DNA of 64,000 nucleotides from Hippopus hippopus (Eukaryota > Mollusca > Bivalvia > Cardiida > Cardiidae). The notes beneath the pieces are model-generated. The model saw nothing but the letters and a program-made list of their open reading frames with translations, was not told the origin of the DNA and ran no database searches. Within the stretch, counting starts at the first letter, position 1, and each line of letters begins with the position of its first letter. Below, piece by piece: positions 21,601 through 60,412 of the stretch. The DNA lies in the NCBI GenBank assembly GCA_946811185.2, contig OX328112.1, forward strand, positions 124,001 through 188,000, written 5' to 3'. A program made the translations under genes and the position numbers.

Positions 21601-24586
21601 CGACAAATTGAATGTAGCTCAAATGGTGATTTCTGTCTTCAATAGAGTAGAAAACCTTGTTGGAATTAAAAAAATGCTTCTTTCCCACAATGTTTTCAAA
21701 AGCTAAATCTTTCATCTATAATTCAGGATTGTGTGATAAAGAGTCAAGTGATCCTCTGGAAATGCTTTAACCCTTTACCAAACAAATCCTGGTTTTCACG
21801 ACCCTGAATAACAAGCCTTTTGAAAACATTGTGAGAAAAGGAGAAAATGCTGGTAACCAGCATTTTCTCCTTTTCCCACAATGTTTTCAACCTTTCCAAA
21901 ACAGATTTCAATTTTTAAGTTGCACTAATTTTGTTGTCTGCAAATGCTTTCAATTTGGACATGTTTAAAATTTTGTCGTTTGGTAAAGGGTTAAATTGGA
22001 TAGTTCTAACATTAGGTTTTTTTGGGTAAAGAGTAAAATAATTTTTGGGACAAAATACCATGAATTTTATGAGAAGGAAATAAATTCATATTACTCACAA
22101 GACAAACCACTTACTTGTTAACTGGACAAAAACATACAACTTGTGTTTTACTAAACTAAACATTTGTGCAGCATCTCCACCAATGCAAGTATCCTGCAGC
22201 AAGACACTCTGGTCATCAATATGGACACCTGAAATTTTACATTGAAATGACTCATCATTAACTCTTTCACACATGACTGAATTCTAGATTTGTCTTAATT
22301 GAAAGCATTTCCAGACAACAAATGAAAATGTAGCCAAAAGCATGTTTTTTATCTTAGAAAGGGAAGAAAACATTGTGGGAAAAGGAGAAAATGCTGATTA
22401 CTAGCATTTTCTCCCTTACCCACAATATTTTTAAAAGGCTTCTATTGAAAATGGTTCACTCTTCGCAAATTGATAAAATTCTGGAATCATCCAAATTTAA
22501 AGCATTTGCAGATAACAAATTTTACTTCATGCTTTTAAATAGTTTATGGTTTGATATTTTATGGTTACGATGACCAGTGAAAAATAAGATTTCCTATTTT
22601 CTGACTCTTCAATTGAAGGCGCAAACAGTAGTTCCTGCTCACTAGTCACCTAGTTAACGGCGGATACCATTCAACCAGAGGAAAATATGATGTAATTTAT
22701 GCAAATTTACCCTACATTTCTTGTGCTTTTCATCATATTGAGGGTTATGTCATGAGGGAATTACCCAAAACAACTGTACTGGATTTTGACAAAAGTCCCA
22801 ACAGAAAATGGGTTAAAAGCATGAAACAAATAGAATATTTGGTTTTTTTTTTTTGGGGGGGGGGGGGGAGGGTTAAAGGTTGAAATATCTCATAAATATA
22901 AGTGGTTATATTTTCATTTGTGGCTGTACCACTCATGAAAATATTACCAATGATGTTCAAAGAAATAAACTTCCATCTTTCTCCAAAAAAATATAGCACA
23001 AATGCCAGTGTGGGTATCACAGAATAGCATTTAATCCTTTTTCCACAATGATTTAAAAAGCATTGGATTGTTTGGTAAAGGTTGGACAGGGAAATTTCAA
23101 ACTTGTCCAATTTGAGAAGATGTGTGGATAACAAATGTAGGTATAGTGGTGGAATTTGTCGATGAATAAGGAGAAAATATTGTTGGAAAAGGAAACAAGA
23201 GCACCACATGCAGGTGTCAACTCTCAATTGAAGTTGCTTGATTTTCAGTGAAAATTCAAAGTTGAAAAACAGGCATAACTGTGTCAGAAATGCTTTGATG
23301 ATTACCTGCCCTTGTTGTATGGGTTTTCCTTTTGATAGTGAACAACTTGCCCAAGTTTGAAGAGGTAAATATCTTCAGTAATGACTGAGATATTACAAAA
23401 AGTCAAAGTTTTTGAAAATGTCCAAGTTTTTGCATGAAACATGGGCAACAAGAATACCTCAATGTTTTCTTCGAAAACAGCCGAGTAGATATGCTAATAA
23501 ACAGTATTTTTTCCTTTTCCCACAATGTTTTCAGCCATTTCCCACAGGGCAGTAAAAGCACAAGATTGTTTAGTCAGGGGTAAACTAACAACAGATACTT
23601 AATAAATAGACCTGCTCTAAGTTTAACCCTTTACCAGATGACAAAATTCTTAACTTGTCCAATTGAAAGCATTTTCAGATGACAAACATTACTTAAACAT
23701 GGTGTTTCTTTTTCAAATGGTAGCAAAACATTGTGGGAAAAGGAGAAAATGATAGTACGAACCAATTTTTTAATGGTTTTTTTTATTTCAACCCTTAACT
23801 CTTTACAAATTGACAAAAATGTCAACTTCAAGATTGAAAGTATTAGCAGACGACAGTTTAAATGGCACTGAAATGATGTGGTTTGTCTATCATAGAGTGG
23901 AAAACACTGTTGGAAAAAGAGAAAATGCTGGTTACCAGCATTTTCTCTTTTTCCTACAATGTTTTCAAAAGGCTTCTTTCTCAGGGTCGTTAAAACTCAG
24001 GATTGTGTGGTAAAGGGTTAACCTGTTAAATATGTGAAACCTTTCAGCTGATAGTAAAAACCTGCATGTTACTATTTCAAAGGTATATTTTGGAGGAAAA
24101 ATATTTCCTTATTGGACAGTGTAGATCTAAGATTAGACTGCACATCCTGTGCTGTCTGATCTTGATCTAAATGGTCCCCAACAGGTTCTTGACCTGTCTT
24201 AACAGCTTAGGTCACAATCAGGCGGTCAGTGCAACTACGTATATGTTTCCTGGCTTTCTCACACAAGTACTAACACAACTTTCTGTCCAAATCACTGACT
24301 ACTTTTCCCACATGCATCAGGTGAGAGGTGGAAAATCACTTGACAAAAGCAAATAAAATAACTGAGAACATTGTTTACATTTAACCTTTTACCACACAAT
24401 CCTGACTTTTATCGACCCTATGGTAGCTTTTTTTAAAAACCTTGTAAAGACCAAATGTGTCATTTGTCATAAGCCACCATTAAGTCGTCTGCAAAATTGT
24501 CCCAATTCAGACATGTCTGATATTTTGTCCTATTGTAAAGGGATAACACAACAACATGACCACTGTAATCGGTCCTTACCTTTCAT
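580..24586 (-). CDS. Unrecognised multi-exon gene (overview)
   Basis: A minus-strand spliced gene inferred from splice sites and reading phase. Exons 24580-24586, 22115-22228, 19597-19658, 18791-18816 and 18120-18219 join in one frame to 309 nt (103 codons, ATG first, no stop), with phases agreeing at all four junctions. Exons 9518-9549, 8685-8716, 7691-7777 and 5269-5405 form a second in-phase block. At least one exon linking the blocks (entering in phase 0, leaving two bases over) is missing. A possible last exon is 580-637. Introns are 0.5-9 kb and filled with MITEs and SINEs. I see no motif that names the protein; exon 5269-5405 has a hydrophobic stretch (LQFILYFRLL). Splice sites and frame are seen; that this is one transcript is inferred. 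Confidence 0.55.
695..896 (+). mobile_element. TH1 MITE, diverged
   Basis: Contains the left body (GACTTGTCAAACTTGAAAG), an imperfect central hairpin (GCTTACCAGCATTTTCTCC) and ends AAAGGGTTAA. The left TTAA is lost. Confidence 0.7.
949..1030 (+). mobile_element. TH1 fragment (left half)
   Basis: TTAACTCCTTACCAAACC start and body to about GAAGACAATATAAAT, then unrelated sequence. Confidence 0.6.
1329..1557 (+). mobile_element. TH1 MITE, full length
   Basis: TTAACCCTTTATCAGATG at left and GGTAATGGGTTAA at right, TTAA at both ends. The central hairpin GGGAAAAGGAGAAAATGC / inverse is intact around the orientation-specific centre GGTTACC. Confidence 0.85.
1637..1866 (-). mobile_element. tRNA-derived SINE, subfamily B
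   Basis: Read on the minus strand it starts with a tRNA-like head (box A TGGCTTAGTGG, box B GGTTTGAACCTC). It ends in the shared body (inverse of AACATTATTTCAGTCATATC). The middle differs from subfamily A and matches 36188-36402. Confidence 0.6.
2055..2233 (-). mobile_element. TH2 MITE nested in a TH1 copy
   Basis: TTAACCCTTATCCTGCTAA at the left, hairpin CAGACTGCATATTCTGTGCAGTCTG, and truncated after GGTCAGTGAGTCG. It is flanked by the two halves of a reverse TH1 copy (1975-2054 and 2234-2265), so it inserted into TH1. Confidence 0.65.
2354..2580 (+). mobile_element. TH1 MITE, full length
   Basis: TTAACTCTTTACCAAAC start, complete hairpin, end GTTTGGGAAAGGGTT. The right TTAA is mutated to TTCA. 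Confidence 0.8.
2584..2798 (-). mobile_element. TH1 MITE, reverse
   Basis: Reverse orientation shown by the centre GGTAACC-like TAGTAACCAG and the right end CGTATGGTAAAGAGTTAA. The hairpin arms have diverged. It directly abuts the SINE at 2801. Confidence 0.7.
2801..3104 (-). mobile_element. tRNA-derived SINE, subfamily A
   Basis: Minus-strand head GAGCCCTGCTAGCTCAGTCG carries box A. Box B is weakened (GGTTGGATCCC). The body ends with the inverse of GTCATATCGCGACAGCCAG. About 300 bp. Confidence 0.7.
3441..3667 (+). mobile_element. TH1 MITE, full length
   Basis: TTAACTCTTTATCAGACC to GTAGTAAAGGGTTAA with TTAA at both ends. Central hairpin present with a few mismatches (CCAGGATTTTCTCC). Confidence 0.8.
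3670..3860 (-). mobile_element. TH1 MITE, decayed reverse copy
   Basis: Recognisable only by GAGAACCAGCATTTTATCC and the body inverse (ACTTTCAATTTGGAGAGATC); both ends are lost. Confidence 0.5.
3929..4395 (-). mobile_element. SINE subfamily A, interrupted
   Basis: The body from TTGATTGATTGTATGGTG to GGGATCGAAAT is standard. The tRNA head is displaced to about 4322-4395, where GGTTTCAAACCG and TAGCTAC remain. The intervening 130 bp repeats part of the body (AAGCAGCCAGTGGC). Confidence 0.5.
4418..4563 (+). mobile_element. TH1 MITE, 3' truncated
   Basis: TTAACTCTTTACCAAATG and the left half up to the hairpin centre GCTGGTTACCAG, where it breaks off exactly at the palindrome axis. Breakage at the hairpin tip is plausible. 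Confidence 0.7.
4564..5268. other. Intronic or downstream unique sequence
   Basis: About 700 bp with no repeat family and no convincing exon beyond 5269. GAACAAGCCCGGAAC-like wording at 4795-4815 recurs loosely near 31750-31800. Confidence 0.4.
5269..5405 (-). CDS. Internal or last exon, 137 nt
   Basis: Acceptor (aaattttcag) is followed by 45 codons, IPGPIKPSVFFRTLRSG then LQFILYFRLLHKDLKVK and PEFSYDGEDSI, ending at donor GTAAGC. Only this frame is fully open. If the donor is not used, the next codons are AAG TAA, so the exon could also be terminal with stop at 5267-5265. It lies in unique sequence between a SINE and a truncated MITE. Confidence 0.6.
5656..5965 (-). mobile_element. SINE subfamily A, diverged head
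   Basis: Body TTGATTGTACGGTC and TCAGTTATATCGCGGCAGC, then GGCCGAGCCGGGAATTGAAC (box B decayed) and a degenerate head. Confidence 0.6.
6300..6420. repeat. Dispersed repeat, pair with 17255-17400
   Basis: CATACCATTTAAAAGTATGG ... GTCCAAGTGTAAGTTGCTGAC ... AAAAATGAATT matches the order of words at 17255-17400. Class unknown. The surrounding 6060-7190 shows no gene. Confidence 0.45.
6957..7030. mobile_element. TH2 hairpin remnant
   Basis: GTAGATCAAGATCAGACTGC with an imperfect inverse; terminal parts absent. Confidence 0.5.
7691..7777 (-). CDS. Internal exon, 87 nt
   Basis: Acceptor attgcgtttcag and donor GTGAGAA enclose 29 codons: HGQFGGMVQRVVPWLSS, then GKESLYTLETSQ. All three frames are open. 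This one is preferred because it enters and leaves in phase 0 and joins the long open exon 5269-5405. Confidence 0.55.
7975..8420 (+). repeat. Short tandem array, about three units
   Basis: GAGCTGC..TT..ATGA then ATACATGGCC(T/C)GGTCATA recurs near 8000, 8200 and 8360, with TAGGCCCCTAGTACTGGCAAAGT-type spacers. Short frames here follow the repeat and are not genes. Confidence 0.55.
8421..9510. other. Intron, no recognisable content
   Basis: Apart from exon 8685-8716 I see no repeat family or exon. The 60-residue frames here look random. Confidence 0.4.
8685..8716 (-). CDS. Internal exon, 32 nt
   Basis: Excellent acceptor (aatttaatctgtcttgcag) and donor GTAACAT. In the favoured frame it encodes SMKRYWSTAK and ends in phase 0. 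The alternative frame IDEKILVYGK is also open. Confidence 0.5.
9518..9549 (-). CDS. Internal exon, 32 nt
   Basis: Acceptor aaggtttttag and donor GTATGAG. In the frame that agrees with the downstream exons it encodes NCTDGNKILT, with one base left over at each end. A second frame (ELYGWQQDPYK) is also open and would join directly to exon 18120-18219, so the frame is not settled. Confidence 0.45.
9559..9743 (+). mobile_element. TH1 MITE, shortened
   Basis: TTAACTCTTTACCAGAC start; most of the central hairpin is deleted; end GTGGTAAAGAGT. It begins ten bases upstream of the acceptor of exon 9518-9549. Confidence 0.65.
9814..10365. mobile_element. Non-autonomous hAT-like element, 552 bp
   Basis: Starts CAGTGTTCTGCC and ends with its inverse GGCAGAACACTG. 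It interrupts the duplicated block: the paralogous site at 11101-11115 runs straight through without it. Flanks ATGACCCC and ATACCCTC approximate an 8-bp duplication. No transposase frame inside. CAGTG termini and 8-bp target duplications are typical of hAT. Confidence 0.65.
10440..10790. repeat. Pyrimidine-rich low-complexity tract
   Basis: About 350 bp of CTCCTC/TCTTCC runs. The minus strand shows short GAG/GAA-rich stretches such as TESEDEEEKEMM broken by stops. The plus-strand frame of 125 residues is Ser/Leu/Phe low complexity and is not a convincing gene. Confidence 0.5.
10795..11036 (+). mobile_element. TH1 MITE, rearranged
   Basis: Left body present twice (GAAGGCACTTGCAGACG, GAAAGTATTTGCAGATG), hairpin with GGTGGATATCAGC centre, end ATTATGTGTAAAGAGT. 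Confidence 0.6.
11163..11514 (-). pseudogene. Decayed acidic repeat-protein fragment
   Basis: On the minus strand ATG 11514-11512 opens 29 codons (MYATDNTPLSSCGTPNG...). After small frame breaks a 30-bp tandem repeat follows, reading GGDSDSEMYS in successive units, with two TAG stops where TAC is expected. The period is a multiple of three and the amino acids are kept, so it looks like former coding sequence of a Ser/Asp/Glu-rich protein on the same strand as the acidic ORF 2 kb upstream. Confidence 0.35.
11609..11630. repeat. Poly-A tract
   Basis: Twenty-two A residues within a decayed repeat unit; related units at 12110 and 12195 carry shorter A runs. Confidence 0.8.
13093..13937 (-). CDS. 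Acidic single-exon ORF, one frameshift
   Basis: From ATG 13937 a 229-codon frame runs to 13248. The coding character moves to another frame near 13323-13330 (SLSSLH..., continuing as DLDALQTSEDFVGLAD) and ends at TAA 13095-13093. Joined across one base it would be about 280 residues. The start MVALIVSAIGYTADLLSW is mildly hydrophobic. The rest is very rich in E, D and S, with three loose repeats beginning EEEVSSFELS, EEEELSFDEF and EISSVELS. The tail RPDRYGDWVYY resembles ends of retroelement polyproteins, from memory of the pattern only. A strong acceptor (tttctctcttcag, exon from 13977) and an in-frame stop upstream suggest a 5'UTR intron. It could be a young gene, a domesticated fragment or a pseudogene; the frameshift could be an assembly error. 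Confidence 0.5.
13938..13995 (-). promoter_or_regulatory. Splice acceptor before acidic ORF
   Basis: On the minus strand a long pyrimidine tract (tttttcttctttctctcttcag) ends at 13978, so an exon begins at 13977, 40 nt before the ATG. In phase 0 this exon would also read VQEDSRFKLSIIYNG, so it could instead serve the surrounding split gene. Confidence 0.5.
14255..14555 (-). mobile_element. SINE subfamily A
   Basis: Body from TTGATTGATTGTATGGTG; minus-strand head GCCCTGGTAGCTCAGTTGG matches box A. The box B region is GGTTGCTGGTTTGCTCCC, partly decayed. Confidence 0.7.
14905..15085 (+). mobile_element. TH2 MITE
   Basis: TTAACCTTTAGGCTGCTAA, ACTCACTGACC, then hairpin GATCAGACTGC / GCAGTCTGATC around CACAGAACAT. 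The right end is not clear. Confidence 0.65.
15381..15594 (+). mobile_element. TH1 MITE
   Basis: TTAACTCTATATTAAAC to GTGGTTAAGCGTTAA; hairpin partly deleted (GGTTACCAGCATATTCTCC). It shares its right TTAA with the next copy. Confidence 0.75.
15591..15803 (+). mobile_element. TH1 MITE, tandem to previous
   Basis: Begins at the same TTAA that ends the preceding copy and ends GTGGTAAAGGGTTA. The hairpin is nearly erased. Confidence 0.7.
16103..16437 (+). mobile_element. Hairpin-ended element D, 335 bp
   Basis: 5' part CTAGAGCCATCACTAAACG contains a small stem (ATCAC/GTGAT) followed by ATCCCCCACC. The 3' part has a GACAGACGAACAGACAGACA tract and a terminal stem CCCTCCAC..TT..GTTGTGGGGG. Same architecture as 19807-21367 and 50738-51363, with a different arm sequence. 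Confidence 0.55.
16465..16980 (+). repeat. About 75-bp tandem repeat split by a MITE
   Basis: CATCCTTGCCTCATGGGCAGC recurs near 16469, 16546, 16612 (varied) and again at 16911. The fourth unit is separated from the third by the TH1 copy 16662-16890. Confidence 0.8.
16662..16890 (+). mobile_element. TH1 MITE, inserted in tandem array
   Basis: TTTACTCTTTACCAAAC to GTTTGGTAAAGGGTTAA. It lies inside a tandem repeat unit whose uninterrupted versions show the target. Hairpin nearly intact. Confidence 0.85.
17085..17190 (-). mobile_element. TH2-related remnant
   Basis: GGTCTGATCCTGGTCTATACAG and GTAATTAAATTCTGGTTCAGC match the arrangement at 19430-19540; the left hairpin arm is decayed. Confidence 0.45.
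17517..17729 (+). mobile_element. TH1 MITE
   Basis: TTAACTCCTTACCAAACG to GTTAAAGAGTTAA with TTAA at both ends and a good hairpin. An older TH1 right end (GATTGTTTGGGAAAGAGTTAA) directly precedes it and shares the TTAA. Confidence 0.8.
18120..18219 (-). CDS. Internal exon, 100 nt
   Basis: Acceptor ttctgtcatgttacag and donor GTAAGTCC flank one base plus 33 codons; only this frame lacks stops. It encodes KSLHIHVYVLGVTST, then RFGLLNVLPKKSIAIGET. It ends in phase 0. The exon is unique sequence just before a SINE. Protein family not recognised. Confidence 0.6.
18277..18530 (-). mobile_element. SINE subfamily A, diverged
   Basis: GTTTAATGCCATTTTCAGC, GCAGCAAGTGCACC, CCAAGCCACTGGCTGC and a damaged tRNA head near 18500-18530. 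Confidence 0.6.
18791..18816 (-). CDS. Micro-exon, 26 nt
   Basis: Strong acceptor (agctttcatcttctgcag) and donor GTATGAG bracket 26 nt encoding LNTSLVIV plus two bases (CA). It enters in phase 0 and leaves two bases, exactly what its two neighbours require (CA+C = His). Confidence 0.5.
19156..19375 (+). mobile_element. TH1 MITE, diverged
   Basis: CTCTTTATCCCAAACAAC to GTGTGGTTAAAT, hairpin GAGAAAAGGAGAAAATGC with damaged right arm. Confidence 0.7.
19430..19510. mobile_element. TH2-type hairpin
   Basis: GTGGACAGTGAAGATCTAAG ... GCATGCTCTGTACAGTCTG ... TGATCTACACTGTCCAC forms a long imperfect stem. Confidence 0.6.
19597..19658 (-). CDS. Internal exon, 62 nt
   Basis: Polypyrimidine tract and acceptor (ttttccaaattttctag) precede 62 nt ending at donor GTGTGA. 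Two bases complete the codon left by exon 22115-22228 (A+AA = Lys). Twenty codons follow (IIIFKTGTAKIGSF, then KSTYGK after the first Ile pair), ending in phase 0. Confidence 0.5.
19807..21367 (+). mobile_element. Hairpin-ended element A with 145-bp tandem array
   Basis: Starts ACAAGAG plus stem AGGGCCATGATGGCCCT (19812-19828) and GCTCACCTGAG (19835-19845). It ends with a GACGACGAACGACAAACGAC-type tract, then a double stem GCTCACC..GAGCAC-TTC-GTGCTC..GGTGAGC (21331-21362) and CTAAAA. The interior is about ten units of about 145 bp (AACATTCTGACCAACTTTCA, AAGGTTTTTCTAAGATTTG). Because 145 is not a multiple of three, the minus-strand frames of 60-96 codons are staggered by 145 bp and are not genes. 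Confidence 0.75.
21407..21520 (-). mobile_element. TH1 fragment, reverse
   Basis: TTAACAACCCTGCAAAACAGG and GGGAAAAGGAGAAAAATGC; breaks at the hairpin. Confidence 0.55.
21548..21745 (+). mobile_element. TH1 MITE, diverged
   Basis: AAATCTTTACCAAACAAC to GTGTGATAAAGAGTCAA with a reduced hairpin. Confidence 0.65.
21767..21994 (-). mobile_element. TH1 MITE, full length reverse
   Basis: TTAACCCTTTACCAAAC / GTTTGGTAAAGGGTTAA are exact inverses (17 bp). Hairpin GAGAAAATGCTGG-TAA-CCAGCATTTTCTC intact; the centre GGTAACC marks reverse orientation. Confidence 0.9.
22115..22228 (-). CDS. Internal exon, 114 nt
   Basis: Acceptor tgtaaaatttcag and donor GTAAGTGG flank 114 nt. Only one of three frames is open: it encodes VHIDDQSVLLQDTCIG, then GDAAQMF and a KLYVFVQLT end. 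The other frames hit stops. Two bases at the start and one at the end belong to split codons, matching both neighbours. The sequence is non-repetitive between MITE copies. Family not recognised. Confidence 0.65.
22259..22435 (+). mobile_element. TH1 MITE, 3' altered
   Basis: TTAACTCTTTCACACATG and hairpin GAGAAAATGCTGATTACTAGC. After the hairpin a second TH1 left body starts (22470-22530) instead of the normal right end. Confidence 0.6.
22840..22872. repeat. T-run/G-run
   Basis: A run of 14 T followed by 14 G then AGGG; likely slippage-prone and a sequencing risk. Confidence 0.8.
23623..23755 (+). mobile_element. TH1 MITE, 3' truncated
   Basis: TTAACCCTTTACCAGATG to GGAGAAAATGATAG; breaks at the hairpin tip, like 4418-4563. 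Confidence 0.65.
23796..24021 (+). mobile_element. TH1 MITE, full length
   Basis: TTAACTCTTTACAAATTG to GTGGTAAAGGGTTAA. The hairpin carries AAAAAGAGAAAA on the left and its exact inverse TTTTCTCTTTTT on the right, a variant present in both arms. Confidence 0.85.
24112..24181. mobile_element. TH2 hairpin
   Basis: GGACAGTGTAGATCTAAG ... GCTGTCTGATCTTGATCTAAATGGTCC; ends not found. Confidence 0.5.
24207..24340 (-). mobile_element. SINE fragment
   Basis: GCGGTCAGTGCAACTACGTAT, TTTCCTGG and CCAAATCACTGACTACTTTTCC follow the SINE A body order; no tRNA head. Confidence 0.4.
24380..24545 (-). mobile_element. TH1 MITE, deletion copy
   Basis: TTAACCTTTTACCACAC at left, CTATTGTAAAGGGATAA at right, hairpin lost. 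Confidence 0.6.
24580..24586 (-). CDS. Start exon (coding part), MK + 1 nt
   Basis: ATG at 24586-24584 is followed by AAAG and a strong donor GTAAGG (24579-24574). It contributes Met-Lys and one base, exactly the phase that exon 22115-22228 needs (G+GT = Gly). G at -3 gives fair start context. A possible acceptor (tttttaag) lies nine bases upstream of the donor, so this may be a second exon with the 5'UTR elsewhere. Upstream ATGs with short frames occur between 24600 and 24680. Confidence 0.45.
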
Positions 24587-26639: not shown

Positions 26640-28200
26640 TAGTGCCTCGACTTTCTGAACGCCAACTTACTGAAGCACTAATGATACTTAGTCGAGATGA
26701 TTCTATCAATGTTGTCACACAGGCATTTAATTCCCATAGAAACACAGTAAGTAATGTTTGTTTAAGGTTTCAGTAAGCTGCAATGGTTTCTAAACATCCT
26801 CAAAATGGCAGGCCTTGTGTAACTGATGGCAGGTTAGACTGTCATTTATCACATAAAACCTCCCCCGGCAACATATATAATTTTGATAATACACTAGCGT
26901 ATTATTGCTTTTTGGGTCCCGGTTCTGATCAATTTTCAGTCATAAGCACATGAAGCTTGAGAAACCAACCACAGTTAATGCTGGATTTGTACTCCTACGC
27001 CATTTTGCGAAAGAATGACATCATTGTTGCTAAGGTGTATATGTATGCGCAGTTCTTGATGTTCTTGTTTAATGAAAAGCAAGAAATGCAGCAAAATCTT
27101 TCTAAAAACAACAAATGTGCTGAATTAGTTGCATTTACCCCATCTAGAAACTGTTTTATTCTACTTGGTGTAAATGTCATGGAACTATCTACTTGTGTAT
27201 GTACACATTTGAACCGAACTACGACTGTAAACATGGACCCCTGATCAGTACATAGTCAATAGATGATGATGCAGGATATTTTTGTCTGTTATTCGTATTA
27301 TGTGATAAACAGAATCTCACATTTGTGTTTATGTATTATCATTTTCATCAAACTTGTTGACTAAAATGTATTTGATGCTCGGGTCATACAATTTTAGTCA
27401 ACTTGTTTGATAAAAATGATAACACATAAACACTCATGTTAGATCCTCTATTTGGAACTGACGCGATACCATTGGTTATAAGCAGAGACACAGTTCTGAG
27501 GCATCTGGGTCACTATGTGGGAACCATAAGACCTGTGTAAGCCATATGTGGTATACATGTTCACATGACTTCATCATGTTGCTTGAATGAGCTGGGCATG
27601 ATAACATTTACATTGGCATAGGCATCAGTGGAACTGAGTTGTCTCTTCTGACAAAACAGGATTTAATCTAAGCCACCATGAGGGGAGGCTGAGGGTGTTC
27701 TGAAGAAGAGAGGAGAAATTTGCAGACTCATATGTAGTACAAAGGAGGAAGTTTGGTGGGGGTAGTGACATGGTATGAGATGGAATTATGGGAAATCTGA
27801 TCTGGTCATTGTGAATGGCAATCTCAACACAGTTGAGTACATAAATCAAGTCTTGAGACCAGTGGCTGTTCCGTTTATTGACTTGCATGCTTCCATCAGA
27901 CTGATGCATGACAATACACATCCGCAACCTGCACAGCTTACTCGGCAATATCTGAATGCAAACAGCATAGCTGTCTTACCTTGACCAACCATTACTCAAG
28001 ACCTGAACCAAAAAAAAAAGCATGTTTGGGATCTGCTTTGGCCTAGAGTAAGGTTCAGGCATGTTGTCAATAATTTAAAGATGTAACAAATGATCTACAG
28101 GCAGAATGGAACATCATTCTTCCATGTGTCATGCAACATTGTGTCAATTCTAGGAGACATCATATTTTACAGGTAATACAAGCCAAGGTCATACCTGATA
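26640..28200 (+). pseudogene. Tc1-like transposase relic, interrupted
   Basis: The N-terminal HTH part is at 26640-26835 (LSERQLTEALMILSRDD, NTVSNVCLRFQ, GRPCVTDG). The C-terminal part is at 27630-28080 (FNLSHHEGRLRVF; GKSDLVIVNGNLNTVEYINQ; LMHDNTHPQPAQLTRQYL; HVWDLLWPRVR), the layout of Tc1 DD34E transposases. The Glu of NPIEHVWD is replaced by Lys-rich sequence, and the middle is missing or replaced by 26870-27455. Several stops. Not active. Confidence 0.8.
27308..27450. repeat. Long imperfect inverted repeat
   Basis: Left arm 27308-27369 (TTTATGTATTATCATTTT, GTTGACTAAAAT) pairs with right arm 27389-27450 (ATTTTAGTCAAC, AAAATGATAACACATAAA). It lies within the sequence interrupting the Tc1 relic, probably part of an inserted foldback or TIR element. 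Confidence 0.65.
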
Positions 28201-29390: not shown

Positions 29391-31571
29391 AGGGCAACTA
29401 CAGCCCAAAGCTACTTTTGGATATAAGAATCCTTAGAAGAAAACAAACTTATAATTAAAAACCATATTTCAATGTCTTTCATAAAAAGGGAGTTACAAGC
29501 GTAAATGTAGTTTGCACACCTGTGCAAGTTTGTGAAATCTTCAATAAACCGGATGTGACGTAGGAAGTGTGACCCACACATTTATTTCGGCTTCTGTGTA
29601 CTGTTAATTTGCTCTGATACCGACTTTTTTTCTCACAGCCTTACCCTCATGTCAGGAGACGATTTTTTTTCGTCACAAAAATCCGTCGTATGCCGGGTAG
29701 CATGTTTAAGCACTATTTCAAGCCAGGAGGTGACTATTTATTCGTCAGTCTACTGTCTGTCTGTCTGTCTGTCTAAACCGAATCATGTGGCTTTATATCA
29801 GATTCACAATTAATCCTCAACAGGTTAAATAAACCTTCATTGCTAGTTTTTGGAGATGGACACCTCCGTATCAGACACTGTACATAAGATCAGACTGCAC
29901 GTTCTGTGCAGTCTGATCTTAATATACACTGTTCGCAAAAGGTCATTGAGTAATGTTCAGCAGCATCGGAAATTTAAATGGGGCAAGAAATCAATGGTAA
30001 ATTCACTGTTAATTATCCATCTCTTTCATATTACTGAGAGAGAGAGAGAGAGAAAGAAAAAAGAAAGAGAGAGAGAGAGATGGAGGGTAGATAAAATAAA
30101 AATTTGACAAGCAGATTATGTTTTTTTTTATTAAAGATCGTATGAATGAGGAAAATACAAAAGTTATGACATTAGACTTACCCATTCAACCTGTGTAAAA
30201 TTCCAAATTCCATTTACATTTAATAAAAAAAAAGGGTTCCAATATGGTCGTGAAAACAAAAGAGTACTTGTACATGACATGTTCATGACACATGCTTGTT
30301 AACCTCCAGCTGCAAGCCAGGTAAAAAAATATGTGAGACCACGACGGTGCGATACTAACATCAAACAGGCGCCGAATTAACCCTCTGCCCCTTTACATTG
30401 ATGTAACACACAATTCTTTTCTTAAAAAAAAAAAAGGTTGGCACACTAAACTTTTGTGTAAAGTTTGTAAGGAGTTATCAAATTTTTAATTTAAGCTGCA
30501 TTTTTATGGTCAGCATTCTGTTATCTCAGACATGATTACAGCGAGAAATACGAAAAAGGAAAGTTACATAATTTTTGTCCGCGTTGGTATAATTTCTTTG
30601 AAATTTTATGCCTAACATGTCTCAGTATATAGGAAATGGACTGAACCTGTATTTTGCAGACGATCAAACACGTTTACTGCATGATATGGAGGGCAGGAAG
30701 GCAGGAGGCAATTCAGAAAATGTTTCATCATTGTGGTTGATGAAAGAGACAAATTTGAAATTGTGAAAATAACACAGAGGAAAATAAATGAAGATTAAGT
30801 GAAAAAAATGGGTTTAACTTTAACAGCAAATTTTGGATGTGTGCTGGATTTAATGTTGTTTGTGAATGTTAAAGAGAGGACACGATTTCTAAGGTAGATC
30901 AAGGCTTTTAATTTTTCCCACGCTGAAGGAGACATGTAAAATGCTGACATTGATAGTGTAGATCAAGATCAGACTGCGCTGGATGTGTAGACCGTTCAAT
31001 GATTGGCAGTGTCCTATATTTGGTAGAAAAAGCCTTAGAACTGAACTCAAATGATTTCCTTTACACACTGCAATGTTCCTTCTACCACTTAGTAGAAGAG
31101 ACTTTTGGCATGTTTCAACTATCTTGTTATTATTTCTTTTTTATGTTTATCTATTAAAATTCATTAATGAGGCAGTGGTATAATTGAAATAACTTCAAGA
31201 AATAAATTTCAAAATAGTTTTGTTCCCCACTAGAAGAATAACTTTTCATAAGTACTATCTCCACTAGGTTAATTCTTTCAAAATTTTCCTATGATTGTAG
31301 TAAGACGTAAGAGCCATAGAGACTGAAATTTTGCAGTACACAAGTGATTGAAACATGCTAAAGCGATTTATATCTTTACAAATTTCATGCAGTTTTCTGT
31401 GCTAGTTCATATATATAGCAACAATATCTTCTCACACTTAGCGACTTTCAGACAGGTGAAAACCCAAAGTTTAAACCCTGTATCTTGTGAAGTAAGCATC
31501 ACACAATGCTAAGATTTTTTTGTTAATATATTCCAGAATAGTTTTATCCAATTTTGGTCTGAAGTTACGCT
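29391..31571 (+). mobile_element. 2.2-kb TTAA-flanked element, copy 1
   Basis: Starts TTAA|AGGGCAACTACAGCC and ends GGTCTGAAGTTACGCT|TTAA, so termini are loose inverses. The copy at 52765-55748 carries the same blocks in the same order inverted (TTCGTCACAAAAATCC; the (GA)n tract; GTGCGATA; CCTCCAGC; TTCAGACAGGTG). No transposase frame. Internal hairpin GATCAGACTGCACG at 29885 is at the same place in both copies. TTAA on both sides fits piggyBac- or Kolobok-type integration. Confidence 0.75.
30032..30080 (+). repeat. (GA)n microsatellite in copy 1
   Basis: GAGAGAGA with AAGAAAAAAGAAAG interruption. The homologous spot in copy 2 (55041-55080, inverted) is a cleaner (CT)n. Confidence 0.8.
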
Positions 31572-32654: not shown

Positions 32655-32920
32655 TTTTTGATTACGGTAAACCTGTAAAACACAATCCCAAATTTTAACA
32701 ATCCTGAGATAGAAGGCTTTAGAAAAAATAGTTGGAAAAGGAGAAAATACTGATTTCCAGCATTTTCTCCTTTTCTCAAAATGTTTTCTACCCCATCAAA
32801 CACATATTGCTTCGTTTTAGTTGCATTTAATTTGTCATCTGCAAACACACTTCGTTTTAATTACATTTTATTTGTCGTCTGCAAACACATCTGATTTGGA
32901 AAAGTCAACATTCTTTTTTC
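32655..32920 (-). mobile_element. TH1 MITE, reverse, partly duplicated
   Basis: AAACACAATCCCAAATTTTAAC, hairpin GGAAAAGGAGAAAATACTG / inverse, then the left body twice (TTTGTCATCTGCAAACACAC, TTTGTCGTCTGCAAACACAT). Confidence 0.65.
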
Positions 32921-32934
32921 CTCCAGCAGGGACC

Positions 32935-34289
32935 CTGTTTTCAAACTTGTCAGATATTATCAAGACAATTATTCTGACCAAGTTTCAAGAGTATCAGGCT
33001 GAAAATACGGCCTCTAGAATGCACACAAGGTTTTCCCAACATTTGGTCCCTTGACCTACTTTTTTAACTGACATGACCCAATTTCAAACTAGTAGGAGAT
33101 ATCATCAAGACAAACACTCTGACCTAGTTTGACAAGTATCAGCCTGAAAATGTGGTCTCCAAAGTGCACAGGGGTGTAAAATTCCACTCATCTGCTCGTA
33201 TTGACGAGTAACATTTGGCTTCGGGCAAGTAGAAAAAATGCCAAGCTCGTCCTGTCAGACGAGTATATTTTAAAACTATTGAATTCTAAATTTGTCAAGT
33301 AAAATTCAAATTACAGGTTATTTCACGGCGAACACAAAACGAAAGTAAAACTGAAATTTCAAAGCATCTCTTCAATCACGATACAGGACGTTTATGTTTA
33401 TTATGCATGCGCATCTGTAAAGTGCTTGACGGGTTTTCTGTTCACGGCATCGTTAGACTAGTATACCTTTACGATCTATGCTACAATTCCTATATTGTTA
33501 GATCGGGACAGGTTTACCAGTCAAGCCACCGGAAAAAAATAAGTATTAAACATCGTCTACTTTGTTTATATTGACACTGTAGTATATGCAGTAGAAATGG
33601 TCATTCAAGTCCGCAAGTTGGGACAAGTGATAGTGTCATAAGGACGAGTAACTTTTTCTACCCACTCGTCCTACAGGACAAGTAGACAAAGAAAAAATTT
33701 TACACCCCTGGTGCACACAAGTTTTTTTTAAGGTTTGGTTTAACTTTTTGACCTACATAACCCAATTTCAATCTTAATTGAGATATCATCAAGACAAACA
33801 CTCTGACCTAGTTTCATGAGTATCAGGCTGAAATTGTGGCCTCTCAACTGCACACAAACTTTTTCTAAGATACGGCCCAGTTACCTACTTTTTGACCTGA
33901 CATGACCCAATTTCAAACTTGTCAAGGACATCATGAAGACAAACACTCTGACCTAGTTTCATAAGTATCAGGCTGAAATTGTGGCCTCCAGACTGCACAC
34001 AAAGTTTTGTAAGATCTGGCCCTGTGACCTACTTTTTGACCCCACATGATCCAATTTTCGAACTTGTCCAAGATTTCATCAAGACAATAATTCAGACCAA
34101 GTTTCATTAATATCTGACCAGAGCACACACAAGGTTTTTCAAAGATCTGGTACCTTGACCTAGCTTTTGACCTTACATGACCAATTTTTAAACCACCAGT
34201 ACCCCAAGATATTGACAGGACGAACATTCTGACCAAGTTTCATGAGTATCTGACTAAAAATGTGACCTCCAGAGCATACACAAGGTCAG
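32935..34289 (+). repeat. Degenerate array of the 145-bp family
   Basis: Phrases AAACACTCTGACCTAGTTTC, ATCAGGCTGAAA.TGTGGCCTC and TTTTGACCTGACATGACCC recur about eight times, related to the interior of 19807-21367 but more diverged. No hairpin termini seen. Split by the insertion 33169-33710. Confidence 0.75.
33169..33710. mobile_element. TIR element, 542 bp, 5-bp target duplication
   Basis: Exact terminal inverse CAGGGGTGTAAAATT / AATTTTACACCCCTG. Flanked by GTGCA on both sides (33164-33168, 33711-33715); removing the element plus one GTGCA restores the array reading AAAGTGCACACAAG. Subterminal ACGAGTA/ACTCGTC words repeat inverted. No frame. Termini are hAT-like. Confidence 0.85.
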
Positions 34290-36187: not shown

Positions 36188-36402
36188 GATTGATTGATTG
36201 AACGGTGTTTTCACATTTTTAGCATTGTTTCAGTCATATCATACTTATGTGTGTCCTGGGTTTCACAAGTGCTAGGCTGCGGCTCTGAAATATCTTGCCA
36301 AAGGACACTCCCTCAAAAGATCCAGTGGTTCAAGTGAGGATCAAACTCGGAACTTCCTGGCTACGAGCTCTACACTCTACTACCAAGCCATGCAGGAACC
36401 AG
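36188..36402 (-). mobile_element. SINE subfamily B
   Basis: Same end (TTGATTGATTGAACGG, GTTTCAGTCATATCATA). The middle TGTCCTGGGTTTCACAAGTGC and head CATGGCTTGGTAGTAG agree with 1637-1866. Confidence 0.65.
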
Positions 36403-36419
36403 AGCACTTTCTAATCAAT

Positions 36420-36564
36420 TTCTTTGACAAAATAGGAAACATTGTGGGAAAAGTAGAAAATGCTGGTTACCAGCATTTTCTACTTTTCCCACAATGTTTT
36501 CTGAAATTAAAGTGGCCTCTACCTAAGGGTTGTTAAAACTCAGGGATGTGTTGTAAAGGGATAA
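36420..36564 (+). mobile_element. TH1 MITE, 5' truncated, mirrored hairpin
   Basis: Arms 36437-36466 and 36470-36499 pair perfectly over 30 bp although both differ from the family by the same mirrored base (AAAGTAGAAAA / TTTTCTACTTT). Confidence 0.8.
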
Positions 36565-37799: not shown

Positions 37800-38690
37800 A
37801 AAGACAAGCAAATGTTTCCATTTTGATCTGTAAAAGTATTGTCTGACCCAATTTCCTTTAATAATCAGGAACCTGGTTGGGTATCTGTGACAAGTTAACT
37901 CTCTTTGGCATACTTTTTAACCAGTTCCATCGAATTTCCAAACACTTTCATGTGATGTTACCAAACCTCATTCCCATCTATTGATTGCAGATATCAAACG
38001 GTTCAAAATTATGTTCATGGCTTTGACTTTGACTAAGTCTGATTGAGTGCAGACACTGCACATCACCCTGATTAATTTTCACTTAAGTGATTCACTAGGA
38101 CCTCGCAATGTTGATTCCATGCAATCATTCCACCCCAAACCCCCGATGTACCGGTCTTACTTGACACGGTTACTTTATGTCAACCAGAATGGCACTTCCT
38201 TCAATCTATAGCACCTTCACAGCTGATCAACCGTGACTTGTGTACATTGCGACAAACAAATCACAGAACGGCCTTGAACGACCAGCCTGCACAATTTTAA
38301 TGACACAATTTCAATCGGCTTCTGAAAGCCGTTCCATTGTTCGGTAGAAAAAAGAAACTGCTGTGCATTTTTCAGATTATCAACTTAGAAACCAAATGCT
38401 GATTTACAGCGATATATTGATTGTCCAATAGGTTGTAGGTGCAGATATGCAAAATCAGCATGTACCTGCACTGTAGCCAGTCAAGTGTGTCAATATGTAA
38501 ATTAATGACAGAGTATCATTTCAAACTTAGTAGAAATATGTTTTTAAGGATTTCAGGTCAAAAGCATGAAAAATGAGAAAATTATGAGAGATCAAAAACT
38601 GTATACTTTCTTTTGCCTTTGAGTATATTTATGAAAATACTTACACAAGCTTTGTAAAACGCACATAAGAATTTCGTCACATTTGCGTAA
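37800..38690. other. Unique sequence, no gene seen
   Basis: About 900 bp of relatively GC-richer, repeat-free sequence with no convincing exon. TACTTTCTTTTGCCTTTGAG near 38605 is inverted relative to CTCAGAGGCAAAAGAAAGTA at 37093. Confidence 0.4.
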
Positions 38691-38698
38691 GTGAAAAC

Positions 38699-38923
38699 TT
38701 AACTCTTTACCACACAATCCCGACTTTTAACAACCCTGAGAGAGAAGCCTTTTGAAAATATTGTGGGAAAAAGAGAAAATGCTGGTAACCAGCATTTTCT
38801 CTTTTTCCCACAATATTTTCTACCCTATCTTAATCAAATTTCAATTTTTCAGTCACATTTTGTCATCTGCAAATGCTTACAATTTGGACTTGTTGAACTT
38901 TTTGTCGTTTGATAAAGAGTTAA
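38699..38923 (-). mobile_element. TH1 MITE, reverse, doubly mirrored hairpin
   Basis: TTAACTCTTTACCACAC to GATAAAGAGTTAA. Arms 38754-38785 and 38789-38820 pair perfectly over 32 bp even though each arm has two changes from the family (AATATTG for AACATTG; AAAAAGAG for AAAAGGAG). Confidence 0.9.
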
Positions 38924-39368
38924 GAAAAAAAATAGGTAAATATTAGTAAAACATGGACCCAGGTGAATTAAAAGCTTCTGAAATTACTGATGTGGTCTCG
39001 CATGGCAATGTTACTTTTGGAGCTCACACATGAACAAAAACCCATGCAAAATTATTGAGGCCATACAGATTGCTAGTACATGCACTATCCATTGGAATTT
39101 CCGATTTCTGAAAATAATCCTACTCCCCATAGAAGGTTGATTTCAGTCAGTGTTTTGATTCACAACTTTCAACATGCACTTATATAATTGGACAAGTTTA
39201 AAATTTTATGCCGCACTTTATTACTTCTGCTGTGCATGACATGCACATCTTTTTGGACTCTACTGGGGCTTTAAAAAGTGATTCAATGCTGCATAAAGTA
39301 TAGTACTGACAGGCAAAATATCAGTAAAGAAGGACAAAATTTAGAAAAAAATAGTTTTCAGTGCTATT

Positions 39369-41030: not shown

Positions 41031-41230
41031 CTGAACTCTTTATCAAACAACCAAAATTTGGTATTCAACCAAGTTGAAAGCTTAATGATTGCTGTCTTTG
41101 AAACGGAAGAAATCACTATGGAAAAAGGAGAAAATGCTGGTTACCAGCATTTTCTCCTTTTTCCACAATGTTTTCAAAAGCCTTCTTCGTCAGAGTCATT
41201 AAAACCGGGCATTGCATGGTAAAGGATCAA
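41031..41230 (+). mobile_element. TH1 MITE, mirrored A-run
   Basis: GAACTCTTTATCAAACAAC to GCATGGTAAAGGATCAA. Hairpin arms share an extra base, GGAAAAAGGAGAAAATGC and its exact inverse. Confidence 0.75.
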
Positions 41231-41960: not shown

Positions 41961-42188
41961 TTAAATCTTTATCAAACAATCCCTGGTTTTTACGACCCTG
42001 AGATAGAAGCCTTTTGAAAACATTGTGGGAAAAGGAGAAAATGCTGGTAACCAGCATTTTCTCCTTTTCCCACAATGTTTTCTACCCTGCTGGAAACAAA
42101 TTTCACTTTTTGAATTACGTTTATTTTGTCGTCTGCAAGTGCTTTCAATTTGGACCAGTCAAAAATTTTGCCATGTGGTTAAGAGTTA
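41961..42188 (-). mobile_element. TH1 MITE, reverse
   Basis: TTAAATCTTTATCAAAC to CCATGTGGTTAAGAGTTAA. Perfect hairpin with GGTAACC centre. Confidence 0.85.
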
Positions 42189-42409
42189 AATCTACCAGAT
42201 AACAAAATTCTAGACTTGTCAATACTGAAAGCATTTGCTGACTACTTACCAATTAATACTCAAAAAACCTGTTTACTTTAAAAGGGTAGAAAACATTGTA
42301 GGAAAGGTGAATATGCTGGCTACCAGCATTTTCTCCTTTTCCCTCAGTGTTTTCAAGAGCTGTCTTACTATTGGTCATTAAAGAACACAATTCTTTGGTA
42401 ATACATTAA
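42185..42409 (+). mobile_element. TH1 MITE sharing TTAA with previous
   Basis: Starts at the TTAA that ends 41961-42188 (head against head) and ends TTTGGTAATACATTAA. Confidence 0.75.
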
Positions 42410-42603: not shown

Positions 42604-42816
42604 TTAACTCTTTCACTGTCAAATAAGTAAATTGGCCCTCTTTTGATAGCTATAAATTCGTTCCATTGAAGTTTACAAAGATTTTGATTGTATAGGCTTG
42701 ACTAAACAGGCACACGGTATGGATCAAAGATCAGACTGCATGTTCTGTGCAGTCTCATCTTGATCTATGCCGTCCGGAAAAGTCACTGTTTTTGCCAATG
42801 GTGCCAAATGGGTTAA
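42604..42816. mobile_element. TH2-related MITE with distinct ends
   Basis: TTAACTCTTTCACTGTCAAA at left, CAATGGTGCCAAATGGGTTAA at right. Hairpin CAAAGATCAGACTGCATG / inverse. Bounded by TTAA on both sides. Confidence 0.65.
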
Positions 42817-44601: not shown

Positions 44602-44828
44602 TTAACTCTTTACCAAACGACAAAATTTTAGACTTGTCAAAATTGAAGCATTTGCAGACGACAATATAAATGTGACTGAAAAACTGATATTTGTTTTGGG
44701 AAGGGTAGAAAACATTTTGGGAAAAGGAGAAAATGCTGGTTACCAGCTTTTTCTCCTTTTCCCACAATGTTTTCAAAAGGCTTCTTTAATAGGGTCGTTA
44801 AAAGTCGGGATTGTGTGGTAAAGGGTTA
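44602..44828 (+). mobile_element. TH1 MITE, full length
   Basis: TTAACTCTTTACCAAACG to GTGTGGTAAAGGGTTAA with the consensus-like body; a good representative copy. Confidence 0.9.
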
Positions 44829-45257
44829 AGGAAGTAACACTTGCGGACACTTTGCAATAGCTTCTACGATTTAAAAAATTTCTTGGAGGGCCCCAAGAGG
44901 CCAAGACCCTCCTGGAACCCCCGCCCCCCTACACTTCCCGCCTGGTATACCTTCGATATTTCTTTTGTATATACTTTTGGACAGCTACACCACTAGTAAT
45001 GGTTGGTGAATACGGACAAGCTGCTCTGGCAGGCTGGAATTTTCATTGGAAACAATGTTCTGTTTCTACACAACGTTGCTCTTTATAATATCAACCTAAT
45101 ATCTAAGAAAAAAATAATTTTACAGAGTGAAAAGTGCTAACTGTGAATGATTCGTCTCAGGACATTCTCATCACTGGAAAACCTCAGCTAGTAGTGACGA
45201 GCACCTGGTAAACTTGCAGCGTGGTAAAATAATCATAATGGGAGGCGTATCATAAAC

Positions 45258-57610: not shown

Positions 57611-57839
57611 TTAACACCTTACCAGACGACAGTATTTTAGACTGGTCCAAATTGAAAGCACTTGCAGGTGAAAAAATAAACATAACTCAAAACTTGAAAT
57701 ATGTTTCCAGCAGGGTAGAAAACATTGTGGGAAAAGGAGAAAATGCTGGTTACCAGCATTTTCTCCTTTTCCAACAATGGTTTCAAAAGGCTTCTATCTC
57801 AGGGTCGTAAAAACCAGGGATTGTTTGGTAAAGGGTTAA
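57611..57839 (+). mobile_element. TH1 MITE with readable empty site
   Basis: TTAACACCTTACCAGACG to GTTTGGTAAAGGGTTAA. The parallel unit at 57405-57430 reads CGACATTCAAATGGACA where this one reads CGATAT-TTAA-[MITE]-TTAA-ATGGACA, so one TTAA-like target was duplicated. Confidence 0.9.
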
Positions 57840-59892: not shown

Positions 59893-60412
59893 GAGCCTTT
59901 GTAGTGCAGTCGGTACCTAGCAATGCAGACTTGTGATTCAGGTGTCCCACCTTACACTGATTTAACCCTTTACCAAACAATCCCTGGTTTTTACGACCCT
60001 GAGATAGAAGCCTTTTGAAAACATTGTGGGGAAAGGAGAAAATGCTGGCAACCAGCATTTTCTCCTTTTCCAACAATGTTTTCTACCCTGCTGGAAACAA
60101 ATTGCAATTTTTGAGTTATGTTTATTTTGTAGTCTGCAGGTGCTTTCAATTTGGACCAGTCTAAAATTCCGTTGTTTGGTAAAGGGTTAAACCCCGGCTC
60201 GGCCAAATTTCTCTCCGATGATTGATGAAAAAGTGACCAAATTCATTTGTTTCTCACTGCTGGACTTTTGAGGAAGCAGTTCGTGGATTGGAAAGAATGT
60301 GTACTGTTGAAAAAATGCCAGGAACACATTAAGTGCACTGACTGCTGCGATATAACTCACAAACTGTTGAAAACATTGTTAAATACCAATCAATAAATCG
60401 ATGAAGTTTGTT
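59893..60412 (+). mobile_element. SINE split by a reverse TH1 copy
   Basis: Head GAGCCTTTGTAGTGCAGTCGG (59896 on) is left of TH1 59962-60190. ACCCCGGCTCGGCCAAATTTC ... GCACTGACTGCTGCGATATAAC and GTTGAAAACATTGTTAAATACC are right. Here the SINE is on the plus strand, unlike most others. Confidence 0.7.
59962..60190 (-). mobile_element. TH1 MITE, full length reverse, in SINE
   Basis: TTAACCCTTTACCAAAC / GTTTGGTAAAGGGTTAA exact 17-bp inverse ends. Hairpin GGAAAGGAGAAAATGCTGG-CAA-CCAGC. Confidence 0.9.

What the first reader, a model, noticed from the sequence alone, without database searches (positions are those of the whole stretch)
38754..38820. Mirrored mutations in both arms of the MITE hairpin
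Several copies differ from the family by changes present in both arms at paired positions. 38754-38820 has two such pairs, 36437-36499 one, 23910-23955 one, and 41118-41163 a paired extra A/T. Thirty-base arms stay perfectly complementary although the flanks have diverged. This suggests arm-to-arm correction (templated repair or replication at a cruciform) or strong selection for pairing.
Basis: partly seen in the sequence, partly recalled or inferred. Interest (0 to 1): 0.75.

Follow-up and report, generated by a model that had tools for sequence, protein, structure and literature searches.

The report
Self-copying hairpin in a common transposon
A small mobile element, present hundreds of thousands of times in this animal-like genome, carries a DNA hairpin; some copies have matching changes in both arms or a flipped centre, as expected if DNA replication sometimes copies one arm from the other, although most changes hit one arm only.

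Summary
The four copies are as described, apart from details, but are not typical. In 163 copies without deleted arm positions, changed pairs are 801 single-arm, 59 mirrored, 47 double non-complementary. Of 123 hairpins free of indels, 7 are perfect; the only non-consensus one is the flagged 38754-38820 copy.

Still, mirrored changes exceed a null that keeps copy and position totals (123 clean hairpins: 40 vs 20.1, 0 of 1500), while non-complementary doubles do not (24 vs 27.3), nor do 32 shifted pairings.

Genome-wide, the 36437 variant occurs 180 times mirrored, 434 and 507 single-arm, 74,474 unchanged; independence predicts about 3. Ten fetched carriers show no shared flank ancestry (P 0.50); 2 of 10 have a flipped centre. 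Centre bases in consensus-armed copies: T 13,298, A 1,923, C 301.

Arm homogenisation plus spacer inversion is the published signature of template switching between inverted-repeat arms (PMC8604942). I judge recurrent template switching, on a minority of copies, most likely. It does not explain overall arm conservation. Against it: no clear mirrored indel, mixed age trends, limited power against subfamilies.

The parts
38699..38923 (-). Complete 225-bp copy of the element carrying the flagged hairpin, TTAA at both ends
   Evidence: TTAA plus terminal repeats at both ends; profile hit 38690-38927 minus, 227.4 bits
38754..38820 (-). Perfect hairpin, arms 38754-38786 and 38788-38820, centre 38787; mirrored differences at 38759/38815 (C>T as read in the arm) and 38772/38802 (G>A); the only perfect non-consensus hairpin among 123 indel-free ones
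36435..36501 (+). Hairpin with mirrored G>T at 36454/36482 and one unpaired change; 5' flank does not match the element, 3' flank and terminal repeat do
   Evidence: same variant counted genome-wide
23795..24021 (+). Complete copy with TTAA ends; hairpin 23900-23966, mirrored G>A at 23918/23948, one unpaired and one double non-complementary pair
41032..41230 (+).
41961..42189 (-). Reference-like copy: both arms equal to the family consensus
   Evidence: arms without any change, TTAA at both ends, fold -38 kcal/mol
44602..44829 (+). Low-divergence copy (flanks 0.10 from consensus) with two unpaired single-arm changes: the ordinary pattern
57611..57839 (+). Low-divergence copy with two unpaired single-arm changes
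59962..60190 (-). Low-divergence copy with three unpaired single-arm changes

Best explanation
The feature is the central near-perfect palindrome (two 33-base arms, one-base centre T) of a very abundant TTAA-flanked, roughly 229-bp non-autonomous DNA transposon (a MITE). Shown: mirrored changes are in excess, and the centre is A far more often than C in consensus-armed copies. Inferred: when replication passes the palindrome, the nascent strand sometimes switches template between arms. A switch to the nascent strand's own first arm copies any mismatch into the second arm and gives a mirrored pair; a switch across to the other strand and back also inverts the centre (T to A). Each event also erases some mismatches. 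Events hit a minority of copies: the centre is A in about 13% of consensus-armed copies (A over A plus T), and the mirrored excess is about 0.08 to 0.16 pairs per copy. Ordinary single-arm point mutations dominate and the hairpin still decays. Conservation of the arms relative to the flanks is mostly set before insertion, at source elements. A smaller share of mirrored changes is inherited by subfamilies.
For: (1) 163 copies without deleted arm positions: mirrored 59 vs 35.5, 0 of 1000 shuffles; double changes that do not pair, the built-in control, 47 vs 46.2. The 123 of them with no indel: 40 vs 20.1, 0 of 1500; control 24 vs 27.3. (2) Pairing-specific: z 3.57 at paired positions; the other 32 offsets range from -2.3 to 1.94, mean -0.12. 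(3) Without the window: 51 vs 30.7 in 138 copies, 35 vs 17.3 in 101 indel-free ones. Later-fetched copies, 19 of 20 used: 3 vs 0.66, P 0.02. (4) Not just a few subfamilies: after dropping 5 close relatives, 30 distinct mirrored types vs 22.2 (P 0.015), 17 vs 9.8 (P 0.003) in the less diverged 126. (5) Genome-wide exact counts for one variant: 180 mirrored, 434 and 507 single, 74,474 unchanged; product rule 2.95. (6) 10 of those 180 fetched: flanks no more alike than random copies (P 0.50), and 2 of 10 centre-flipped. (7) Centre: T 13,298, A 1,923, C 301 with flank-defined orientation; in sampled copies T>A 15 of 146 at the centre vs 75 of 2940 at arm T columns, Fisher P 1.4e-5, and A-centred copies do not cluster by flank (P 0.58). 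(8) The A share rises with flank divergence, 7%, 17%, 17%, 20% by quartile (one-sided P 0.036, correlation P 0.07). (9) The same pair of signatures is published for yeast inverted repeats (PMC8604942, abstract and one section read).
Against: Indels: 96 of 281 copies have indels in one arm only and 55 in both; of 266 compared, 4 were flagged as sharing one, three being one-base gaps at an arm end and one a 4-base deletion starting two bases apart in a badly damaged copy, so no clear mirrored indel where a few would be expected. Age: over 163 copies the mirrored excess fits a constant per copy (log-likelihood -103.3) better than one proportional to single-arm changes (-106.8), pointing to an origin at or before insertion; with flank age over 147 they tie. 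Types seen exactly once are not in clear excess (15 vs 14.4 over 158; 12 vs 7.9, P 0.07 over 126). Same-variant mirrored carriers are weakly more alike in flanks (P 0.09), and two copies share three mirrored changes by descent. Copies with three or more mirrored pairs exceed the null (5 vs 0.9), as tract copying predicts, but two of the five are that group. Centre: in the sampled indel-free oriented copies it is T 101, A 8, C 6, G 1, so A over C is not clear there and rests on the genome-wide counts; flank T columns show T>A at 514 of 6677, not far below the centre, and 11 of them exceed it. In the later-fetched set non-complementary doubles were also above expectation (2 vs 0.8). The product rule assumes copies of similar age.
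Confidence: 0.66

Rival explanations
1. Inherited subfamilies: mirrored changes arose rarely in source elements (kept paired by selection during transposition) and were multiplied; new mutations fall in single arms.
For: Single-arm changes dominate, 801 vs 59. Two copies share three mirrored changes. The mirrored excess fits a constant per copy over 163. A second hairpin family in the same genome shows mirrored differences fixed between subfamilies: 65 mirrored, 70 single, 3 non-complementary in one 56-copy flank cluster. Arms lag flanks most on internal branches (ratio 0.135 vs 0.376 terminal, 22 copies).
Against: Ten carriers of one mirrored variant share no detectable flank ancestry, and the nearest flank neighbour lacks the change in both arms for 33 of 45 mirrored sites. 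Distinct mirrored types are in excess. It does not predict a T-to-A change of the centre. A subfamily marked by fewer than about three flank sites could be missed (my estimate from the spread).
Confidence: 0.2
2. Interlocus gene conversion: palindrome tracts are copied between elements, in either orientation, spreading a mirrored variant and flipped centres over many flank backgrounds and keeping arms more alike than flanks.
For: Arms are less diverged than flanks (intercept -0.06). Mirrored variants are scattered over flanks. Inverted-orientation conversion would flip the centre. Not tested directly.
Against: It would spread single-arm variants equally and so does not create the mirrored excess by itself; the homologous tract is only about 70 bp between flanks that mostly differ by 20 to 40% (pairwise distances).
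Confidence: 0.08
3. Chance plus recurrent hot positions: mirrored pairs are coincidences at mutable sites.
For: In the window alone mirrored pairs are not above the null (12 vs 9.8).
Against: The null keeps position and copy totals and is exceeded with more copies; genome-wide 180 vs about 3.
Confidence: 0.03

Closest known systems
Template switching between inverted-repeat arms in yeast (PMC8604942; abstract and the section on spacer inversion read)
   Same: Arm homogenisation and inversion of a short spacer between perfect arms, recurring independently
   Different: There: events in coding genes (39 genes; ten spacer inversions) with strains and reconstructed ancestors. Here: one palindrome repeated hundreds of thousands of times, with no allelic data
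Template-switch origin and maintenance of RNA hairpins (PMC8794818; abstract, first part of Results and Discussion read)
   Same: Compensatory changes in both stem halves explained by copying one half from the other
   Different: There selection on RNA structure is present, loop inversions are rare, and single compensatory changes are not enriched over simulation while multiple ones are. Here no RNA function is known and the centre is often inverted
Quasipalindrome template-switch mutation in E. coli (PMC7202029 seen only in a search listing; the wider literature recalled)
   Same: Imperfect inverted repeats are mutation hot spots through template switching
   Different: Bacterial laboratory system; inferred here from genome copies
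MITEs with TTAA target sites, piggyBac-like (recalled)
   Same: Short, non-autonomous, TTAA at both ends, short terminal repeats starting CYCTTTACC
   Different: Large central palindrome; the mobilising transposase was not looked for

Membership tests
MITE (non-autonomous DNA transposon) | Short terminal inverted repeats and a duplicated target site | tested here: met
   TTAA and matching terminal repeats at both ends of several window copies, e.g. 38699-38923, 44602-44829, 59962-60190; decayed ends in others. An empty site was not examined
MITE (non-autonomous DNA transposon) | High copy number, no coding capacity | tested here: met
   372,286 core matches within 3 mismatches in 1.07 Gb, reversed-pattern control 1; an element of about 229 bp is too short to encode a transposase
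piggyBac superfamily | TTAA target site | tested here: met
piggyBac superfamily | Mobilised by a piggyBac-type transposase | not tested
   No transposase search was made
Template-switch (quasipalindrome) mutation | Paired changes in both arms beyond chance | tested here: met
   and genome-wide counts
Template-switch (quasipalindrome) mutation | Inversion of the spacer | tested here: met
   T 13,298, A 1,923, C 301; weaker in the 116 sampled indel-free oriented copies with a centre base (A 8, C 6, G 1). The G-centre count and a control T>A elsewhere in the arm were not obtained genome-wide. A one-base spacer cannot tell inversion from T>A mutation in a single copy
Template-switch (quasipalindrome) mutation | Several adjacent differences copied in one tract | tested here: inconclusive
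   5 copies with three or more mirrored pairs vs 0.9 expected, but two of the five are one inherited group
Template-switch (quasipalindrome) mutation | Indels copied as well as substitutions | tested here: not met
   266 of 281 copies compared; 4 flagged, three at arm ends and one unclear in a damaged copy
Template-switch (quasipalindrome) mutation | Event seen between known ancestor and descendant | not testable with these tools
   One assembly; the search tool states that no relatives of this genome are held

The most novel reading that the evidence does not exclude
The mirrored changes and centre flips are made during the transposition cycle itself: the excised element's central hairpin is copied fold-back, parvovirus-like, so each jump can re-copy one arm from the other and flip the centre. 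The palindrome would then be actively renewed by mobility, which would explain why the mirrored excess fits a constant per copy and why source-level arms stay nearly perfect while flanks drift.
Probability: 0.12. Interest if true: 0.85.

Novelty: new member of a known kind. Interest (0 to 1): 0.58.

Why it matters
How often animal germline replication switches template at a palindrome, within or across strands, is hard to measure because events are rare at any one locus. A single palindrome repeated hundreds of thousands of times, with an orienting flank, a one-base centre that reports cross-strand switches and arm mismatches that report copying, is a ready-made reporter; with a second individual or a sister species the rate and type of switching become directly countable. 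In the titles and abstract beginnings listed by my searches I saw no paper that used a MITE palindrome in this way; the library lacks most subscription papers.

Tried and rejected
Rejected: (a) that mirrored changes are the rule in this family (801 single-arm vs 59 mirrored); (b) one inherited subfamily as the sole cause; (c) pure coincidence (and the genome-wide counts); (d) post-insertion selection for pairing as the main cause of arm conservation: arm divergence rises with flank divergence at slope 0.73-0.82 and intercept about -0.06 to -0.08, although a slope below 1 and a terminal arm/flank ratio of 0.38 leave room for mild protection or for bias from keeping copies without deleted arm positions.

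Led nowhere: Rfam (no hits at gathering score); exact patterns in viral contigs and genome contigs, no matches; literature on MITE palindromes. A first analysis of two other hairpin families merged related families and was replaced. In one search two of ten carriers were aligned in the wrong orientation; one search corrects this and supersedes its flank statistic. One search stopped with a script error and was redone. Rows dropped: one search left out 3 of 25 window copies with flanks that could not be aligned; of 281 two-armed copies, 118 with deleted arm positions were left out of the main test; the remaining 163 still include 40 with insertions or a missing centre, which removes (123 left); of 163, 147 could be oriented well enough for flank tests; 31 sampled copies were chosen through a perfect 25-base core (136 without deleted arm positions remain after leaving such copies out: 56 vs 35.0 mirrored).

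Full report
What is there. The window lies in a 1,068,471,763-base assembly of 34 contigs (C17:124001-188000). The 18 contigs sampled are 36 to 82 Mb long; the nineteenth has 30,698 bases. The repeats look like those of a bivalve mollusc to me; that is recalled, not tested. The finding concerns the centre of a TTAA-flanked element of about 229 bp with short terminal repeats (TTAACYCTTTACCAAAC...). Its middle is a palindrome: two 33-base arms around a single T. A 25-base core of it occurs 372,286 times within three mismatches, against 1 for the reversed control, about one per 2.9 kb. Within the window 28 centres lie within three mismatches of a 23-base core, and 43 profile hits reach both arms.

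Check of the observation. The cited copies carry the cited paired differences, with the corrections given in the observation check. They were picked by eye from a family in which single-arm change is the rule: in the window 214 single-arm, 12 mirrored and 10 double non-complementary pairs. A null that keeps the number of changes of each copy and of each position and base gives 9.8 mirrored pairs (P 0.27). The 16 least changed copies show 5 mirrored vs 1.4 expected (P 0.003), while the 24 copies with at most 10 changes show the same 5 vs 3.3 (P 0.21). The window alone therefore could not decide.

More copies. I fetched 19 ten-kilobase stretches from 18 contigs at round coordinates; 30 three-kilobase loci had come with the pattern search. 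Together with the window, 329,200 unique bases gave 377 profile hits, 281 with both arms, 163 of them without a deleted arm position. In the 163 there are 381 left-only and 420 right-only changes, 59 mirrored and 47 double non-complementary pairs; the null gives 35.5 and 46.2, and 0 of 1000 shuffles reach 59. Forty of the 163 carry insertions or lack the centre base; the 123 indel-free hairpins give 530 single, 40 mirrored and 24 non-complementary pairs against 20.1 and 27.3 expected, 0 of 1500 shuffles reaching 40. The non-complementary number is the built-in control: double hits that do not restore pairing occur about as often as chance predicts. Sliding one arm against the other gives z 3.57 at the true pairing; the other 32 offsets lie between -2.3 and 1.94. 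The excess remains without the window (51 vs 30.7, 138 copies), in the ten-kilobase stretches alone (35 vs 20.2, 86 copies) and without the clearly inherited pair (53 vs 35.0, 161 copies; all), and in 19 of 20 copies fetched afterwards, one dropped for gaps (3 mirrored vs 0.66, P 0.02; non-complementary 2 vs 0.8).

Genome-wide counts. For the mirrored change of the 36437 copy (G>T at the twentieth arm base from the outer end) the exact 39-base frame occurs 74,474 times unchanged, 434 and 507 times with one arm changed and 180 times with both. The product rule predicts 2.95, so 16% of the counted hairpins carrying the change carry it in both arms. Left and right here are defined relative to the centre T, so a flipped copy counts on the other side. 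Ten of the 180, on nine contigs, were fetched. Their flanks are 14 to 33% from consensus and no more alike than ten random copies (P 0.50), and two of the ten have the centre flipped relative to their flanks. The power of that comparison is limited: by my estimate a subfamily marked by fewer than about three flank sites would be missed.

The centre. A switch across strands inside a palindrome inverts its centre, here T to A. With orientation fixed by the left flank and the covered arms equal to consensus, the genome holds T 13,298 times, A 1,923 times and C 301 times. In the sampled copies A is 15 of 146 at the centre against 75 of 2940 at T positions in the arms (Fisher P 1.4e-5), A makes up 0.65 of centre changes against 0.42 at flank T columns (P 0.019), and the A-centred copies do not cluster by flank (P 0.58). 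In 45 unselected copies with perfect inner arms A is 6, against 6 of 627 at outer-arm T sites of the same copies (P 4e-5). Against this, flank T columns as a whole show T>A at 514 of 6677 and 11 of them exceed the centre, and in sampled indel-free oriented copies A is 8, C 6 and G 1 against T 101; the case for inversion therefore rests mainly on the genome-wide counts. The A share rises from 7% to 20% across flank-divergence quartiles (225 copies, one-sided P 0.036, correlation P 0.07), as expected if flips accumulate after insertion.

Mechanism. Arm homogenisation together with spacer inversion is the published signature of template switching between inverted-repeat arms (PMC8604942, abstract and one section read); the same process is proposed to create and repair RNA stems (PMC8794818, abstract, part of Results and Discussion read). 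A rough estimate of mine, not a tool result: if about 0.15 switch events hit a copy, each spanning half an arm, with about 2.3 mismatches per arm pair, then about 0.09 mirrored pairs per copy are expected; the observed excess is 0.08 (fit), 0.14 or 0.16. The two signatures are therefore compatible with one process. That the switching happens at ordinary replication rather than during transposition is inference.

Against it. No clear mirrored indel was found: of 266 copies compared 4 were flagged, three with one-base gaps at an arm end and one with a 4-base deletion starting two bases apart in a badly damaged copy. The mirrored excess fits a constant per copy better than one proportional to single-arm changes over 163 copies, with a tie on flank age over 147. 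Types seen only once are not in clear excess. Part of the signal is inherited (two copies sharing three mirrored changes), and in a second hairpin family of the same genome mirrored differences are fixed between subfamilies. So source-level paired evolution exists too, and I give it 0.2 as the main cause.

What is not explained. Arms are less diverged than flanks, with terminal branch ratio 0.38 and internal 0.135 over 22 window copies. Arm divergence rises with flank divergence at a slope of 0.73 to 0.82, so most of the difference looks set before insertion. The rate of switching inferred here is too low to keep arms alike.

Verdict. A real and recurrent excess of mirrored changes, with frequent centre inversion, in an otherwise ordinary, very abundant MITE: a new instance of a known mutational mechanism with unusual statistical power, not a new system.

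Noticed in passing
window 2163-2228, 19447-19512, 24129-24194, 29886-29951, 42727-42792; loci L042, L043, L036, L032: A second hairpin family (arm core GATCAG[A/C]CTGC[A/G]C, 5-base centre) in which mirrored differences separate subfamilies: 65 mirrored, 70 single, 3 non-complementary in a 56-copy flank cluster.
   Followed up: partly
G000 C1:6534331, 6534556 and 6534781: Three exact matches of the element's 54-base core spaced exactly 225 bp, about the length of the element: it may form a short tandem array.
   Followed up: no
window 11927-12870: Three units about 400 bp apart, each carrying a copy with the same arm deletions, so probably duplicated after insertion; such arrays could date arm changes without transposition.
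   Followed up: no
window 19878-21270 and 32886-34286: Two arrays of a roughly 145-bp tandem repeat.
   Followed up: no
window 27311-27447: Inverted repeat with 57-base arms, 86% complementary, unlike the MITE palindrome by eye.
   Followed up: no
window 62554-63338: Repeats of 249 bp at spacings of 133, 154 and 249 bp, with open reading frames running through them.
   Followed up: no
window 36315-36435: The 36437 copy has a recognisable 3' half but no recognisable 5' flank up to the palindrome: perhaps a breakpoint at the palindrome.
   Followed up: no
arm positions 16-20 of the family (e.g. window 38770-38774): The mirrored excess is largest in the middle of the arm: 14 vs 4.6 expected, with smaller excesses in the other blocks (7 vs 6.3, 8 vs 5.3, 15 vs 11.4, 5 vs 2.1, 10 vs 6.1); unexplained.
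   Followed up: no
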